NCBI RefSeq assembly: GCF_014522265.1
Contig: NZ_CP017024.1
Location: 248,001 to 312,000, forward strand
From: Pseudomonas oryzihabitans
GTDB taxonomy: Bacteria; Pseudomonadota; Gammaproteobacteria; Pseudomonadales; Pseudomonadaceae
DNA: 64,000 nt
Direction: 5' to 3'
Shown here: positions 17,222 to 34,330 of the stretch, in pieces
How positions within the stretch are numbered: the stretch's first letter is position 1
How the letters are laid out: each line of letters opens with the position of its first letter
Notes under the pieces: generated by a model
The model's input: the letters and a program-made list of their open reading frames with translations, nothing else
What the model was told of the DNA's origin: nothing
The model's database searches: none
Program-made: the position numbers and the translations under genes

Positions 17222-17790
17222 GTTGGGTTGGTCGCCAGCGAAGCCCAACGGGGCCAGGCGCTGTTGGGCTTCGACGATGGGGCTGTTTCAACCCAACCTA
17301 CGGGTTCGCTTTGCCTCTTCTCCCCCTGGGAGAGGGCTGGGGTGAGGGTAACCCCTGAACGCGTGGAAAACGCTGCGCGGTTTTCCACCCTACCCGCCTG
17401 TTGGGCTTCGACGGTGGAGCTGTCTCAACCCAACCTACGGGTGCGCTTTGCCCCTCTCCCCCTGGGAGAGGGCTGGGGTGAGGGTAACCCTGAACGCGTG
17501 GCAAACGCTGCGCGGTTTTCCACCCTACCCGCCTGTTGGGCTTTGACGATGGAGCTGTCTCAACCCAACCTACGGGTGCGCTTTGCCTCTTCTCCCCCTG
17601 GGAGAGGGCTGGGGTGAGGGAAAGCCGTCATGCCTGAGCCATTGAACGCGTGGAAAACGCTGCGCGGTTTTCCACCCTACCCGCCTGTTGGGCTTCGACG
17701 GTGGAGCTGTCTCAGCCCAACCTACGGGTCCGCTTCGCCCCCTCTCCCCCTGGGAGAGGGTTGGGGTGAGGGAAAGCCCGGCTACCGCCC
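17222..17790. repeat. Cluster of four mosaic hairpin repeats
   Basis: About 570 bp without a gene. A 133-150 bp composite unit recurs four times. Module A is GTGGAAAAC/GTTTTCCAC (for example 17363-17389). Module B is CCCTGGGAGAGGG followed by GGTGAGGG (near 17322, 17455, 17592 and 17742). Module C is TGTTGGGCTTCGAC with CCCAACCTACGGG. The frames that stay open across it simply reflect the repeat. It sits between converging pdxY and dksA2 and may work as a bidirectional transcription barrier. The same modules recur at four other places in the window. Confidence 0.8.
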
Positions 17791-23557: not shown

Positions 23558-24337
23558 ATGCCCCGTTTCGCCGCCAACCTCAGCATGCTCTACCCCGAGC
23601 ATGCCTTCCTCGACCGCTTCGCCGCCGCCGCGGCGGATGGCTTCCAGGCCGTGGAATACCTCTTTCCTTATGAGCACACCGCCGCCGAGATCAAGACACG
23701 CCTGGACGCCGCGGGCCTGACCCAGGTGCTGTTCAACGCCCCGCCCGGTGACTGGGCCGCGGGTGAACGTGGCCTGGCCGCCCTGCCCGGTCGCGAAGCC
23801 GAATGCCGCGCCGGCATCGACCGCGCCCTGGACTACGCCGCCGTGCTGGGCAATCGTCTGGTGCATGTGATGGCCGGCCTGCTGCCCGCCGGAGTCGACC
23901 GGGCCCGCGCCCGCGACACCTACCTGGGCAACCTGGCCCATGCCGCCGAACAGGCGGCCAAGGCCGGGGTGACGATTCTCATCGAGCCGATCAACCCGCG
24001 CGACATGCCCGGCTATTTCCTCAATCGCCAGGACGACGCCCAGGCCATCCGCCAGACCATAGGCGCTGACAATCTGAAGGTGCAGTTCGACTGCTACCAC
24101 TGCCAGATCGTCGAGGGCGACGTCAGCAAGACCTTCGAGCGCGACTTCGCCGGCATCGGCCACGTGCAGATCGCCGGGGTACCCGATCGCCACGAACCGG
24201 ATCTGGGCGAGCTGCACTATCCCTATCTGTTCGAGCGCTTCGACGCCCTCGGCTACGACGGCTGGATCGGCTGCGAATACCGTCCGCGGGGCGATACCTC
24301 GGCGGGGTTGGAGTGGTTGCGCAAGCTCAGGGCCTGA
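23558..24337 (+). CDS. otnI: 2-oxo-tetronate isomerase OtnI
   Basis: A 259-residue TIM-barrel isomerase of the hydroxypyruvate isomerase (Hyi) family. It converts 2-oxo-tetronate to 3-oxo-tetronate, supplying the OtnK substrate. [12 protein letters not shown] starts the barrel. The two metal-binding Glu residues lie in [15 protein letters not shown] and in [11 protein letters not shown], with [10 protein letters not shown] between. GGGAG is 9 bases before the ATG, and only 15 bases separate it from the permease, so it closes the operon. On sequence alone hydroxypyruvate isomerase is the alternative; context favours OtnI. Confidence 0.9.
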
Positions 24338-24471
24338 GTCCCTGTTGGGCTTCGACGATAGAGCCGTCTCAGCCCAACCTACGATCAGGTTTGTAGGGTG
24401 GACAACGGCGCAGCCTTGTCCACCGTCAGGCACCTAGGCCCGGTGGAAAACGCTGTGCGGTTGTCCACCCT
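24338..24471. repeat. Hairpin repeats at the otnI 3' end, interrupted by the IS110 element
   Basis: Module C (TGTTGGGCTTCGAC with CCCAACCTACG) comes first. Then two module A hairpins: GGTGGACAA/TTGTCCACC at 24398-24425, and GGTGGAAAAC/GTTGTCCACC at 24442-24469. The second copy lost its right-hand CTAC end to the element: CCACC-CT is followed by IS sequence, and the missing ACGGGG reappears at 25681. Joined, they rebuild the intact repeat end. Confidence 0.8.
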
Positions 24472-24479
24472 TGTATCTC

Positions 24480-24660
24480 GACGACAGCCTCCTCAGGGGG
24501 CATAGTCCCCGGCTGATCATCGGGGAGGATGGCAGGCCGTGTCCACCCTTAAGCCTTTGAGCTTGCAACGTAGATAGGCTGCCTCCTCCACACCCATCCC
24601 CGAGTCCGAACGGTATCTAGAGCCTCCAGAGCTCGTATTGCACAAGGTTGGACGGGATGA
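24480..24660 (+). ncRNA. Predicted bridge RNA of the IS110 element
   Basis: Three foldable parts occur in order. A 5' hairpin is CCCCG (24507-24511)/CGGGG (24521-24525). A target loop has outer stem GGCAG (24531)/CTGCC (24579) and inner stem AAGC (24551)/GCTT (24561). Its left strand TGTCCACCCT (24540-24549) is identical to the target 24462-24471, and its right strand CGTAG (24569-24573) is complementary to CTACG across the right junction. A donor loop has outer stem GTCC (24604)/GGAC (24650) and inner stem GAGC (24620)/GCTC (24631). Its left strand ACGGTATCT (24610-24618) is identical to the right end 25672-25680, and ACAAG (24642-24646) is complementary to CTTGT at the left junction. Size and order match the IS621 bridge RNA. 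Confidence 0.85.
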
Positions 24661-24693
24661 CGTGATCGTGTCGCATCTGAAGGAGGAGACATC

Positions 24694-25662
24694 ATGGCCG
24701 TAATCGGTGTTGATATCGCCAAGCGCAGCTTCGATCTGGCGGTCCTGCAATCCAATGGCAAGCACCGGACCAAGGGCAAGCTGAGCAATGATCCGTCAGG
24801 CTTCGCGGTCTTTGCCGACTGGCTGCAACAGCATGCCGAGCCAGGCGCTTGGATCGTGATGGAGGCCACGGGCACCTATCACGAAGCGCTCGCCGAGCAT
24901 TTCCATGCGCTGGGCTACCGAATCGCCGTGCTCAATCCGGCACAGATCGCTCGCTATGCGCAAAGCCAGTTGCAGCGCAGCAAGACGGACAAACTCGACG
25001 CCAAGCTGATCGCCACCTATGGCCAGCGGCATGAAGACAGCCTGCGGGCCTGGCACCCCGAGCCTGTGTCCATCCGCACGCTTCGCGCGCTGACCCGGCG
25101 CCTGGAGGATCTCCAATCGCTACGGCAGATGGAACTCAATCGGCTCGAGGTCAGCCCGGAAAAAGTCCAAAACTCGATCCAGGCGGTCGTGCAGCGGCTC
25201 GATGAGCAGATCGCCTGGACGCTCGAACAGATCAAACGGCATATCGACGATGACCCGGACCTGAGCGGCAAACGTGATCTGCTGGTGAGCATAGACGGCA
25301 TCGCCGACAAGACCGCCGCCCTGATCCTGGCGGAGCTCGGCGATATCGGTCGCTTCGCCGATGCCCGCGCCGTGACCGCCTTTGCCGGTTTGAACCCACG
25401 CCTACAGGAATCAGGTCTTTACCGCGGCCATACCGGCATCTCGCGCATGGGATCGGTCCGCTTACGAAGTGCGCTATACCTACCCGCCGTCGTGGCGCTG
25501 ACCTACAACCCGGCTATCAAGGCGCAAGCCGAGCGTCTGAAAACCAGGGGGAAGAAAGGTAAACAAACCGTCTGCGCCGCCATGCGCAAGCTGCTGACCA
25601 TCGCCTATGGCGTGCTCAAATCAGGCAAGCCTTTCGACCCTGCTTTAGCGATTGCACACTGA
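24694..25662 (+). CDS. IS110-family transposase (bridge-RNA-guided recombinase)
   Basis: A 322-residue DEDD recombinase. The N-terminal RuvC-like domain begins VIGVDIAKRSFDLAVL (first Asp), followed by EATGTYHEAL (Glu) and SKTDKLDAKLIA (two Asp), giving the full catalytic tetrad. A coiled-coil linker covers roughly 115-185. The C-terminal Transposase_20 domain has the helix-hairpin-helix ISIDGI-like segment, FAGLNPRLQESG and HTGISRMGSVRLRSALY, which holds the nucleophilic Ser. GGAGGAG lies 8 bases before the ATG. Length and motifs are normal, so I see no sign of decay. Confidence 0.95.
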   Translation: MAVIGVDIAKRSFDLAVLQSNGKHRTKGKLSNDPSGFAVFADWLQQHAEPGAWIVMEATGTYHEALAEHFHALGYRIAVLNPAQIARYAQSQLQRSKTDKLDAKLIATYGQRHEDSLRAWHPEPVSIRTLRALTRRLEDLQSLRQMELNRLEVSPEKVQNSIQAVVQRLDEQIAWTLEQIKRHIDDDPDLSGKRDLLVSIDGIADKTAALILAELGDIGRFADARAVTAFAGLNPRLQESGLYRGHTGISRMGSVRLRSALYLPAVVALTYNPAIKAQAERLKTRGKKGKQTVCAAMRKLLTIAYGVLKSGKPFDPALAIAH

Positions 25663-25680
25663 GGGGCGAAGACGGTATCT
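25652..25680 (+). promoter_or_regulatory. Half-promoter at the IS right end, completed on circularisation
   Basis: TTGCAC at 25652-25657 is a good -35. The -10 TATCTT would be made from TAT (right end), the CT core and the first T of the left end, with an 18-base spacer. It would exist only in the excised circle and would drive the bridge RNA and transposase. IS621 is known to build its promoter this way; here it is inferred. Confidence 0.5.
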
Positions 25681-25728
25681 ACGGGGCTATCGCGGACCGC
25701 CATGGCCGCGCTAAAAACGCTCGCCCCT
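25681..25728. repeat. REP-like hairpin flanking the IS right end
   Basis: The stretch starts ACGGGGC and ends CGCTCGCCCCT. Inside, GCGG-CC and GG-CCGC pair around GCCAT. It is the right-hand remainder of the target region and runs into the stop codon of the next gene. Confidence 0.5.
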
Positions 25729-26278
25729 ACACCTCCACCACCGCCAACGGCTGCCCCAGGCGTCGGCGGAATTCCTCCAGGAAGGCCGGGGCGAAGGCCC
25801 GCGCCGGCCAGTGGTTGAAGATGAAGCCCAGGTCGGAAAAGGCGCAGGGCTGGGGGAAATCGAAGCCGTTGATGTCGTCTTCGTGAGCGCATTCCGGGCA
25901 GGCGAAGTTGTCGCTTTCCGCCGGCATCCAGACTTCCAGGTGCTCGAACAGCGCCTCGCCAATCTCGCGGCGGCAGGCGGGGCAGCGGGCGCGACCCTCG
26001 AAGCCGGCCAGCGGGGTGAAGATGCAGCGTTCGGTGACGATCTCCAGGCCGCCGTCGGCGAAGTCGCGCGGATCGTCCATGCCTGGCGCCAGGCGCAGCA
26101 CCTCGGTCAGTCGCGGCCCCGGCGCATGGCCACGCCGGCCGCGACTGGGCAGGCAGGGCGAGGCCTCGGCCCTGACCACGCCGCTGGCGGCGAGCCAGCC
26201 AAGAATCTCCACGGCGGTGCGCTCCACCCGCGGATGGCTGGAAATGCGGGGAGCGAGGATGGTCTGGCGCAGGGTCAT
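25727..26278 (-). CDS. Conserved hypothetical protein with two CxxC zinc knuckles
   Basis: A 183-residue soluble protein. CPAC (about 98-101) and CPEC (about 126-129) form a likely zinc ribbon. The surrounding region (RCIFTPLAGFEGRARCPACRREIGEALFEHLEVW) and the ending (FSDLGFIFNHWPARAFAPAFLEEFRRRLG) look conserved, but I do not recognise a characterised family. It lies between the IS element and xseA, divergent from xseA. Its role is unknown. Confidence 0.7.
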   Translation of the reverse strand: MTLRQTILAPRISSHPRVERTAVEILGWLAASGVVRAEASPCLPSRGRRGHAPGPRLTEVLRLAPGMDDPRDFADGGLEIVTERCIFTPLAGFEGRARCPACRREIGEALFEHLEVWMPAESDNFACPECAHEDDINGFDFPQPCAFSDLGFIFNHWPARAFAPAFLEEFRRRLGQPLAVVEV

Positions 26279-34081: not shown

Positions 34082-34330
34082 AGCTGGGCCTGTTGGGCCG
34101 CGCTAAACGCTCAACCCAACCTAGGGTCCTGCGCCTCATCTCCCTCGGGGAAAGGCTGGGGTGAGGGGAAACTCCAGCCCCGTAGCGTGGAAAACCGCGC
34201 CAGCGTTTTCCACTGACGGCCCGGTGCCTTAGCCGCGTGGACAAGGCTGCGCCGTTGTCCACCCTACACGGCGTCCGGCTGGTCTCGGAAAACCCCCTCT
34301 CCCCCGGGAGAGGGCTGGGGTGAGGGTCCT
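34082..34330. repeat. Hairpin repeat cluster with an intact IS110 target site
   Basis: Modules follow in the order C (TGTTGGG... CCCAACCTA), a degenerate B (CTGGGGTGAGGGG), A (GTGGAAAAC... GTTTTCCAC), A again (GTGGACAAGG... CGTTGTCCAC) and a clean B (CCCCGGGAGAGGG with GGTGAGGG). TTGTCCACCCTACA at 34255-34268 equals the left target plus core and first two right bases of the site occupied at 24470. It lies between the convergent GST and DUF4174 genes. Confidence 0.75.

What the first reader, a model, noticed from the sequence alone, without database searches (positions are those of the whole stretch)
24480..24660. A readable bridge RNA: both guide loops match the actual IS110 junctions
Seen: upstream of the transposase the RNA folds into a target loop and a donor loop. 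The target loop holds TGTCCACCCT (24540-24549), identical to the left target plus core (24462-24471), and CGTAG (24569-24573), complementary to CTACG across the right core. The donor loop holds ACGGTATCT (24610-24618), identical to the right end plus core (25672-25680), and ACAAG (24642-24646), complementary to CTTGT at the left core. Each guide sits in an internal loop bounded by outer and inner stems. Known: IS621-type bridge RNAs have exactly this layout. Inferred: this is a working guide with target TGTCCACC-CT-AC.
Basis: partly seen in the sequence, partly recalled or inferred. Interest (0 to 1): 0.92.

Follow-up and report, generated by a model that had tools for sequence, protein, structure and literature searches.

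The report
IS621-type bridge RNA targeting REPs
A small bacterial jumping gene carries an RNA whose two loops spell out the genome address it jumps to and its own ends; it is a well-preserved member of the recently described IS621 bridge-RNA family, and comparing its relatives shows the address in the RNA changing together with the landing site.

Summary
All four guide matches lie at the stated coordinates; 0 of 20,000 shuffles of the left end reproduced them in order. The element (24472-25680) encodes an IS110-group recombinase whose only solved relatives found are IS621 and ISCro4. A covariance model built from the window and 26 relatives finds the IS621 bridge RNA, which was not in its training (E 3e-9).

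The strongest evidence is evolutionary. In 107 insertions from 28 clusters of related elements, the 9-nt left target guide equals the left flank in 88 and has at most 3 mismatches in the rest. Permuting flanks between clusters never reaches the observed fit (0 of 100,000). Empty alleles in sister genomes show scarless insertion at the CT core. Compensatory changes support 25 of 41 pairs of the fold.

This is a new member of a known kind. Extras: a conserved hairpin before the target loop that IS621 lacks; two elements in one genome with the same left guide but different right guides that use different sites; a natural off-target insertion; and a window site that differs from all 8 sister alleles read at two bases, both matching the guide. 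Transcription and activity are untested.

The parts
24463..24471 (+). Left target (7 nt) plus CT core, GTCCACCCT, in the right arm of a REP-like palindrome (24442-24471)
   Evidence: identical to LTG; 8 sister genomes' empty alleles read TTTTCCACGCT here
24472..25680 (+). IS110-group insertion sequence, 1209 bp, ending with the second CT core
   Evidence: 4 copies in own genome; boundaries fixed by empty alleles of other copies in sister genomes
24472..24693 (+). Left non-coding end that holds the bridge RNA
   Evidence: covariance-model match 24510-24670 (the window is one of the 27 training rows)
24487..24501 (+). 5' stem-loop of the RNA
   Evidence: helix 1 (7 of 9 pairs with change on both sides)
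24507..24525 (+). Second 5' hairpin, loop CUGAUCA; present in relatives, not found in IS621
   Evidence: helix 2 (98.8% of cells paired, 2 pairs with change on both sides)
24524..24589 (+). Target-binding loop (outer stem, LTG, inner stem-loop, RTG)
24541..24549 (+). Left target guide (LTG) GTCCACCCT; T at 24540 also matches
24570..24573 (+). Right target guide (RTG) GTAG; C at 24569 extends it to 5 nt
24574..24575 (+). Target-loop handshake bases AU, complementary to donor positions 7-6 (T, A)
   Evidence: mapped on IS621 numbering
24595..24659 (+). Donor-binding loop
24610..24618 (+). Left donor guide (LDG) ACGGTATC plus T, identical to the right end plus core
24637..24646 (+). Right donor guide (RDG) ATTGCACAAG, one nucleotide longer than in 25 of 27 aligned elements
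24647..24648 (+). Donor-loop handshake bases GU; G pairs with target position 7 (C), U faces C at position 6
   Evidence: mapped on IS621 numbering
24694..25662 (+). IS110-group recombinase, 322 aa; D7, E57, D99, D102, S240 align with the IS621 catalytic residues
25672..25680 (+). Left donor plus core at the right end of the element (ACGGTATCT)
25681..25683 (+). Right target ACG
24393..24423 (-). Neighbouring inverted REP-like unit that holds an intact, unoccupied target GTCCACCCTAC (24393-24403, minus strand)
34257..34267 (+). Second intact, unoccupied target GTCCACCCTAC in the window

Best explanation
This is an IS110-group (IS621-like) insertion sequence with an open recombinase gene and a complete bridge RNA in its left end. 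Inferred mechanism, from IS621: the excised circle joins right and left ends, the RNA is transcribed from the left end and binds the recombinase; its target loop pairs with both strands of GTCCACC-CT-AC at the foot of a REP-like palindrome, its donor loop pairs with ACGGTAT-CT-TGTAT at the circle junction, and the recombinase exchanges strands at the CT core, leaving a scarless insertion. Shown here: anatomy, family membership of the protein, RNA homology to the IS621 bridge RNA, guide-target covariation, scarless empty and occupied alleles. Not shown: transcription, RNA ends, binding, recombination.
For: Protein: Pfam DEDD_Tnp_IS110 and Transposase_20, NCBIfam 'IS110 family RNA-guided transposase', PDB IS621 E 3e-68 and ISCro4 E 6e-67; catalytic residues aligned. 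Guides: 0 of 20,000 shuffles. Covariation: LTG against left flank 9/9 in 88 of 107 insertions, 8 in 12, 7 in 4, 6 in 3; six variable positions of 28 cluster representatives match at 162 of 168 against 85 +/- 8 when flanks are permuted (0 of 100,000); matching falls to 23% at position 10. Donor: LDG equals the right end at 8 of 8 positions in 26 of 26 elements checked, including one with the same changed base on both sides, L135. Fold: 25 of 41 pairs with change on both sides, 125 such cells against 38 +/- 7 shuffled; slid controls 5-12 pairs. CM: loci not in training: IS621 E 3e-9, Xanthomonas 7e-27, Fukatsuia 6e-16; one place only in the window. Selectivity: 4 of 9 exact 11-mer sites of the own genome occupied, 0 of 71 one-mismatch sites (p 8e-5); the backward control finds 43 places, so many of the 71 are chance sites. 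Empty alleles: e.g. L228 TTGTCCACCCTACGACGG against occupied TTGTCCACCCT|IS|ACGACGG.
Against: No expression data. The junction promoter is inconclusive: a TTGC stands 17 nt (24 of 26 elements) or 18 nt (window, L006) before TATCTT across the circle junction, but the window's score is reached by 10% of shuffles and the TTGC lies in the last codons of the gene. Rfam gave no match at the thresholds used. The window's site differs from the 8 sister alleles read at two guide-matching positions, so its pre-insertion state is not seen directly. Insertions with 3 guide mismatches exist (L017, L144, L173), and one with 5 in ungapped register (L274), so pairing is not strict.
Confidence: 0.95

Rival explanations
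1. The matches are short homologies without function: the IS carries fragments of REP sequence and of its own end by chance or by past capture, and the protein alone chooses the target.
For: REPs are abundant around the element; insertion sequences of other families also choose REPs (passages of PMC1525189).
Against: Chance is excluded. Guide and flank change together across 28 clusters, over nine positions only; the structure around the guides is kept by compensatory changes.
Confidence: 0.02
2. The leader is chiefly a regulatory 5' UTR that hides the ribosome-binding site, as reported for ISPpu9, and the guide matches are secondary.
For: The fold of the whole window leader pairs its 5' part with the ribosome-binding region; ISPpu9 in P. 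putida is regulated by its 5' UTR fold and two small RNAs (abstract of PMC8450116).
Against: In the consensus of 27 elements the 5' part forms a local hairpin instead (helix 1). Regulation would not explain covariation with flanking DNA. The two roles are not exclusive.
Confidence: 0.03
3. The element is a bridge-RNA IS but this copy is a relic that no longer moves, its left flank having been homogenised with other copies after insertion.
For: 8 sister alleles read TTTTCCACGCT, the window GTTGTCCACCCT; both differences match the guide. 2 of 4 own-genome copies have a stop in the transposase.
Against: The window copy's frame is open and its guides are complete. Copies L002, L003, L023 and the off-target copy L017 have the same target sequence as empty alleles in sister genomes, so flanks are not generally rewritten. 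A change before insertion, by conversion from the inverted REP 40-80 bp upstream, explains it as well.
Confidence: 0.15

Closest known systems
IS621 (E. coli) and its 177-nt bridge RNA
   Same: Recombinase family and catalytic residues; CT core; donor ACxGTAT-CT-TGTAT; LTG/RTG/LDG/RDG order, RTG GUAG, AU and GU handshake bases; REP target ending CTAC; RNA found by the model
   Different: About 45% protein identity; guide reads GTCCACCCT instead of ATCGGGCCT; an extra hairpin with loop CUGAUCA before the target loop; RDG one nucleotide longer
ISCro4 recombinase (PDB 9t56)
   Same: Homologous recombinase
   Different: Its RNA was not compared here
ISPpu9 and ISPpu10 (P. putida, IS110 family, in REPs)
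   Same: IS110 family, REP targets, 2-bp repeat at the insertion point (PMC1525189 passages)
   Different: Sequences not compared here; ISPpu9 was studied for regulatory small RNAs (PMC8450116 abstract)
seekRNA of IS1111 elements (ISPa11 and others)
   Same: RNA-guided target choice; ISPa11 targets REPs (PMC11187229 passages)
   Different: IS1111 elements carry the RNA in the right end, downstream of the transposase (PMC11208160 section 12); here it is upstream

Membership tests
IS110-group bridge-RNA insertion sequence (IS621 type) | DEDD RuvC-like domain plus Transposase_20 domain with serine | tested here: met
IS110-group bridge-RNA insertion sequence (IS621 type) | Long left non-coding end with the structured RNA upstream of the recombinase gene | tested here: met
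   222-nt left end; fold with compensatory changes
IS110-group bridge-RNA insertion sequence (IS621 type) | Target-loop guides match left target+core and right target+core | tested here: met
IS110-group bridge-RNA insertion sequence (IS621 type) | Donor-loop guides match right-end and left-end junction sequences | tested here: met
IS110-group bridge-RNA insertion sequence (IS621 type) | Homology of the RNA to the IS621 bridge RNA | tested here: met
   L179:221-392, 48.1 bits, E 3e-9, not in training (E-values of the model are rough)
IS110-group bridge-RNA insertion sequence (IS621 type) | Scarless insertion at a dinucleotide core | tested here: met
   empty and occupied alleles of other copies
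IS110-group bridge-RNA insertion sequence (IS621 type) | Promoter reconstituted at the circle junction | tested here: inconclusive
IS110-group bridge-RNA insertion sequence (IS621 type) | RNA is transcribed, binds the recombinase and is needed for recombination | not testable with these tools
   needs experiment
IS1111 group | RNA in the right end, downstream of the transposase | tested here: not met
   the RNA lies upstream; from stop codon to right end is 18 nt

The most novel reading that the evidence does not exclude
In this Pseudomonas-centred branch the bridge RNA has a fourth, conserved domain: a hairpin between the 5' stem-loop and the target loop with loop CUGAUCA, whose UGAUCA core is self-complementary. 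It could let two RNAs, one serving target and one donor, kiss in the synaptic complex, or be a recombinase contact. In the same branch, left and right target guides trade off in nature: with the same left guide, an element with a 7-nt right guide settles at sites with a poor left match.
Probability: 0.2. Interest if true: 0.55.

Novelty: new member of a known kind. Interest (0 to 1): 0.38.

Why it matters
It gives a clean, readable natural case of guide-target co-change among close relatives, with empty alleles, off-target insertions and a same-genome comparison of two right guides. That is natural data for questions asked of bridge recombinases in the laboratory: how much mismatch is tolerated, and how far a longer right guide moves specificity. 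The extra hairpin marks a branch of bridge RNAs that may use a part that IS621 lacks.

Tried and rejected
Rfam, at gathering scores over the whole window and at E up to 1 over 24400-24720: no match. Plasmid search by DNA gave 2 distant records, one of them (Xanthomonas sacchari) useful. Viral contigs gave one relative.

Idea that the target REP is that of the resident REP-associated transposase: the one Y1_Tnp gene found in the own genome is flanked by a different REP (GTAGGAGCGGCC...), and no site within 2 mismatches of the target was found in its 3.3-kb locus; dropped. The weaker statement stays: the target is the foot (CTAC, reverse complement of GTAG) of a REP-like palindrome, and the published REPs that I saw in passages of a table begin with GTAG or GTGG, some after one extra base (PMC2817692).

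Guide-directed rewriting of the flank as the cause of the window's odd site: rejected as a general process because other copies keep the target sequence of empty alleles, even the off-target one. A pseudoknot between the second hairpin loop (GATCATC) and the GATGATC common after the donor loop was considered; the parts vary too little to test, and the window lacks the full match. Junction promoter: inconclusive.

Rows dropped and weaknesses of the counts: of 108 rows one truncated tandem row without an RTG was left out, leaving 107. Up to five of the 107 may be second sights of one insertion: four short-flank rows from contig starts (L034, L035, L039, L040) and L084, whose left flank equals that of L052; without them 83 of 102 match at 9 of 9. 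The permutation test uses one row a cluster and is not touched by this. Two clusters (14 and 16) mix elements with different LTGs, so they are clusters of left-end likeness, not of guides. The anchors demanded a CT core and the second-hairpin motif, so the set leans towards both. 9 of 132 loci with at least 50% protein identity were not used; of these, L109, L110, L112/L175 and L180 were read by eye: they match their flanks at 8 or 9 of 9 and show the second hairpin, in L109 with a changed loop. L018, a truncated copy, was left out of the RNA alignment. Relatives below 50% identity were tested only with the CM. The output was cut in the middle, so sister alleles for copy L004 were seen in part only; the L004 rows that I saw (L234, L237) hold the exact 11-mer but differ in the right flank.

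Full report
WHAT IS THERE. The window carries a 1209-bp insertion sequence (24472-25680) between a gene for a xylose-isomerase-like protein (23558-24337) and a minus-strand open frame without a Pfam match (25727-26278). Its gene (24694-25662, 322 aa) matches DEDD_Tnp_IS110 and Transposase_20 and NCBI's 'IS110 family RNA-guided transposase'. The only two solved sequences found at E up to 0.001 are IS621 (E 3e-68) and ISCro4 (E 6e-67). D7, E57, D99, D102 and S240 (positions) align with the IS621 catalytic residues D11, E60, D102, D105 and S241 named in PMC11208158 (passages); the PDB chain is numbered two higher.

THE OBSERVATION. In 20,000 dinucleotide-preserving shuffles of the left end the four guides never occurred in order. 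I took an IS621 copy from an E. coli plasmid record. Counted from its LTG, its other guides fall at the nucleotide numbers printed in the structural paper: RTG 77-80, LDG 123-130, RDG 157-165, handshake 81-82 and 166-167. The window has the same series: GTCCACCCT, GTAG, ACGGTATC, ATTGCACAAG, AT, GT. The target-loop handshake bases AU pair with donor positions 7-6 (T, A). In the donor loop G pairs with target position 7 (C), while U faces C at position 6, which is not a pair.

GUIDE AND FLANK CHANGE TOGETHER. From the loci held, 108 rows with both anchors were found and 107 kept. They fall into 28 clusters by left-end similarity; the 28 representatives carry 18 different LTGs. LTG and left flank agree at 9 of 9 positions in 88, 8 in 12, 7 in 4 and 6 in 3. 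Up to five rows may be second sights of one insertion; without them it is 83 of 102. Across different clusters only 2.7% of pairings agree at all nine. With one insertion per cluster, the six variable positions match at 162 of 168; permuting flanks among clusters gives 85 +/- 8 and never 162 in 100,000 trials. Matching is 89-100% at the nine positions and 23% or less beyond. The right guide GUAG is nearly constant; the next base agrees in 66% of 98 insertions, against 38% across clusters. The donor guide equals the right end at 8 of 8 positions in 26 of 26 elements; in L135 both sides carry the same changed base.

EMPTY SITES. Sister genomes show unoccupied alleles. For copy L003, G002 reads CGCCGTTGTCCACCCTACGACGGTGG where the own genome has ...GTTGTCCACCCT|IS|ACGACGGTGG. 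Corresponding empty sites were seen for L002 (L229) and for G006 copy L023 (L205). The insertion is scarless apart from the second copy of CT. In the own genome the 11-mer GTCCACCCTAC is empty at 5 places and occupied at 4; 71 places with one mismatch are all empty (p 8e-5). The backward control pattern finds 43 places, so many of the 71 are chance sites. Counting by hand only the 24 that read TTCCACCCTAC or ATCCACCCTAC, 4 of 9 against 0 of 24 gives p = 126/40920, about 0.003.

THE RNA. In 27 aligned elements, the window and 26 relatives, the consensus has 44 pairs. Leaving out three pairs between the two donor guides, 41 pairs were counted: 94.3% of cells pair, 25 pairs have changes on both sides, and 125 cells do so, against 38 +/- 7 in shuffles; sliding the partners by 1-3 columns gives 5-12 pairs. 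A covariance model from the TBL-DBL part of the same 27 finds one place in the window, 24510-24670, as it must, since the window is a training row. The real test is 26 loci outside the training set: 9 matches at E up to 1, among them IS621 itself (48 bits, E 3e-9), Xanthomonas sacchari (E 7e-27) and Fukatsuia (E 6e-16). This is homology, not only likeness. Rfam gave no match.

WHAT DIFFERS FROM IS621. (a) A second hairpin stands between the 5' stem-loop and the target loop. The loop motif CTGATCA is exact in 25 of 28 clusters and changed in the others. It is also in the Xanthomonas and Fukatsuia copies, and in the loci that the anchors had missed and that I read by eye; it was not found in the stretches looked at in IS621, L182, L060, L061 and L072. 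The anchor search asked for this motif, so its frequency in the set is biased; the missed loci are the fairer check. Its stem has two pairs with change on both sides. Whether it is in the mature RNA is unknown. The IS621 text describes a 5' stem-loop and two further stem-loops (PMC11208160 section 6); its figures were not available, so I do not claim that the hairpin is unpublished. (b) The right donor guide is 10 nt long in the window and L006, 9 in the other 25 aligned elements.

TARGET BIOLOGY. The target is the foot of a REP-like palindrome: CTAC is the reverse complement of GTAG, with which many published REPs begin (table passages of PMC2817692). IS621 and several Pseudomonas IS110-family elements are known to enter REPs (PMC1525189 passages; PMC11208160 section 9). 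The one REP-associated transposase gene found in the own genome is flanked by another REP type.

A NATURAL COMPARISON OF RIGHT GUIDES. Genome G147 holds two related elements with the window's LTG (GTGTCCACCCT). Type A has RTG ...CCCGUAG: 9 copies, 0 with a perfect left match (1-3 mismatches), 8 with seven matched right positions (CTACGGG). Type B has RTG ...AACGUAG: 10 copies, 7 with a perfect left match, 2 with one mismatch, 1 with five (L274), and 0 with seven right positions. Fisher p is 0.003 for the left match and 0.0001 for the right. In G130 13 copies with the same LTG have 0 or 1 left mismatch; 12 of them share one RTG (CTACGTCGC as target) and L284 has another. The elements also differ elsewhere, so the right guide is the likely but not the proven cause. 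That longer right guides occur and raise specificity in the laboratory is known (PMC11208160 section 9). Mismatched natural insertions include L017, into a different repeat (CCCAACCT) with a like empty allele in G007 (L251), and L274, whose flank fits the guide if one extra base is allowed.

THE WINDOW'S OWN SITE. Both flanking genes were found together in 9 of 12 sister genomes. In 8 of the 9 the site reads TTTTCCACGCTA(C/A)G; the ninth (L189) has no such REP; three more distant genomes were not resolved. The window reads TTGTCCACCCT|IS|ACGGGG: two changes, both towards the guide. Copies L002, L003, L023 and L017 keep the target sequence of empty alleles, so general rewriting is unlikely. Conversion from the inverted REP just upstream, which holds the exact target, before insertion is my preferred account. 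It is inference.

LIMITS. No transcript, binding or recombination data. The junction promoter is unproven. Two of four own-genome copies have a stop in the transposase; none was altered here. Papers: PMC11208160, outline, sections 5, 6, 7, 9, 12 and passages; PMC11208158, PMC2817692, PMC1525189 and PMC11187229, passages; PMC8450116, abstract and outline. Searches for related work were made, listings only beyond these papers.

VERDICT. An ordinary, very well preserved member of the IS621 kind, correctly read by the first stage, with natural data on guide specificity that add some interest.

Noticed in passing
24442-24471 with 25681-25690: 8 sister genomes have TTTTCCACGCTA(C/A)G at the orthologous empty site; the window has two changes that both match the guide.
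   Followed up: partly
L090, L144-L147, L263-L276 (genome G147): Two related elements in one genome share the left guide but differ in the right guide and use different sites.
   Followed up: yes
24507-24525: Conserved hairpin with self-complementary loop core UGAUCA before the target loop, not found in IS621.
   Followed up: partly
L017 (G006:C1:4300597-4301809): Natural off-target insertion of the same element into a different repeat (AACCCAACCT|AC), with a like empty allele in G007.
   Followed up: yes
17383-17393, 17518-17528, 17670-17680: Three near-target REP feet (TTCCACCCTAC) in a row, all unoccupied.
   Followed up: no
L034-L040, L043, L044 (Pseudomonas sp. BN417): Contigs begin or end a few bases outside the IS: copies of this IS break the assembly.
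   Followed up: no
L182 (Pantoea sp. SS70 plasmid): A stretch with the left end and first RNA part appears twice in tandem upstream of the transposase.
   Followed up: no
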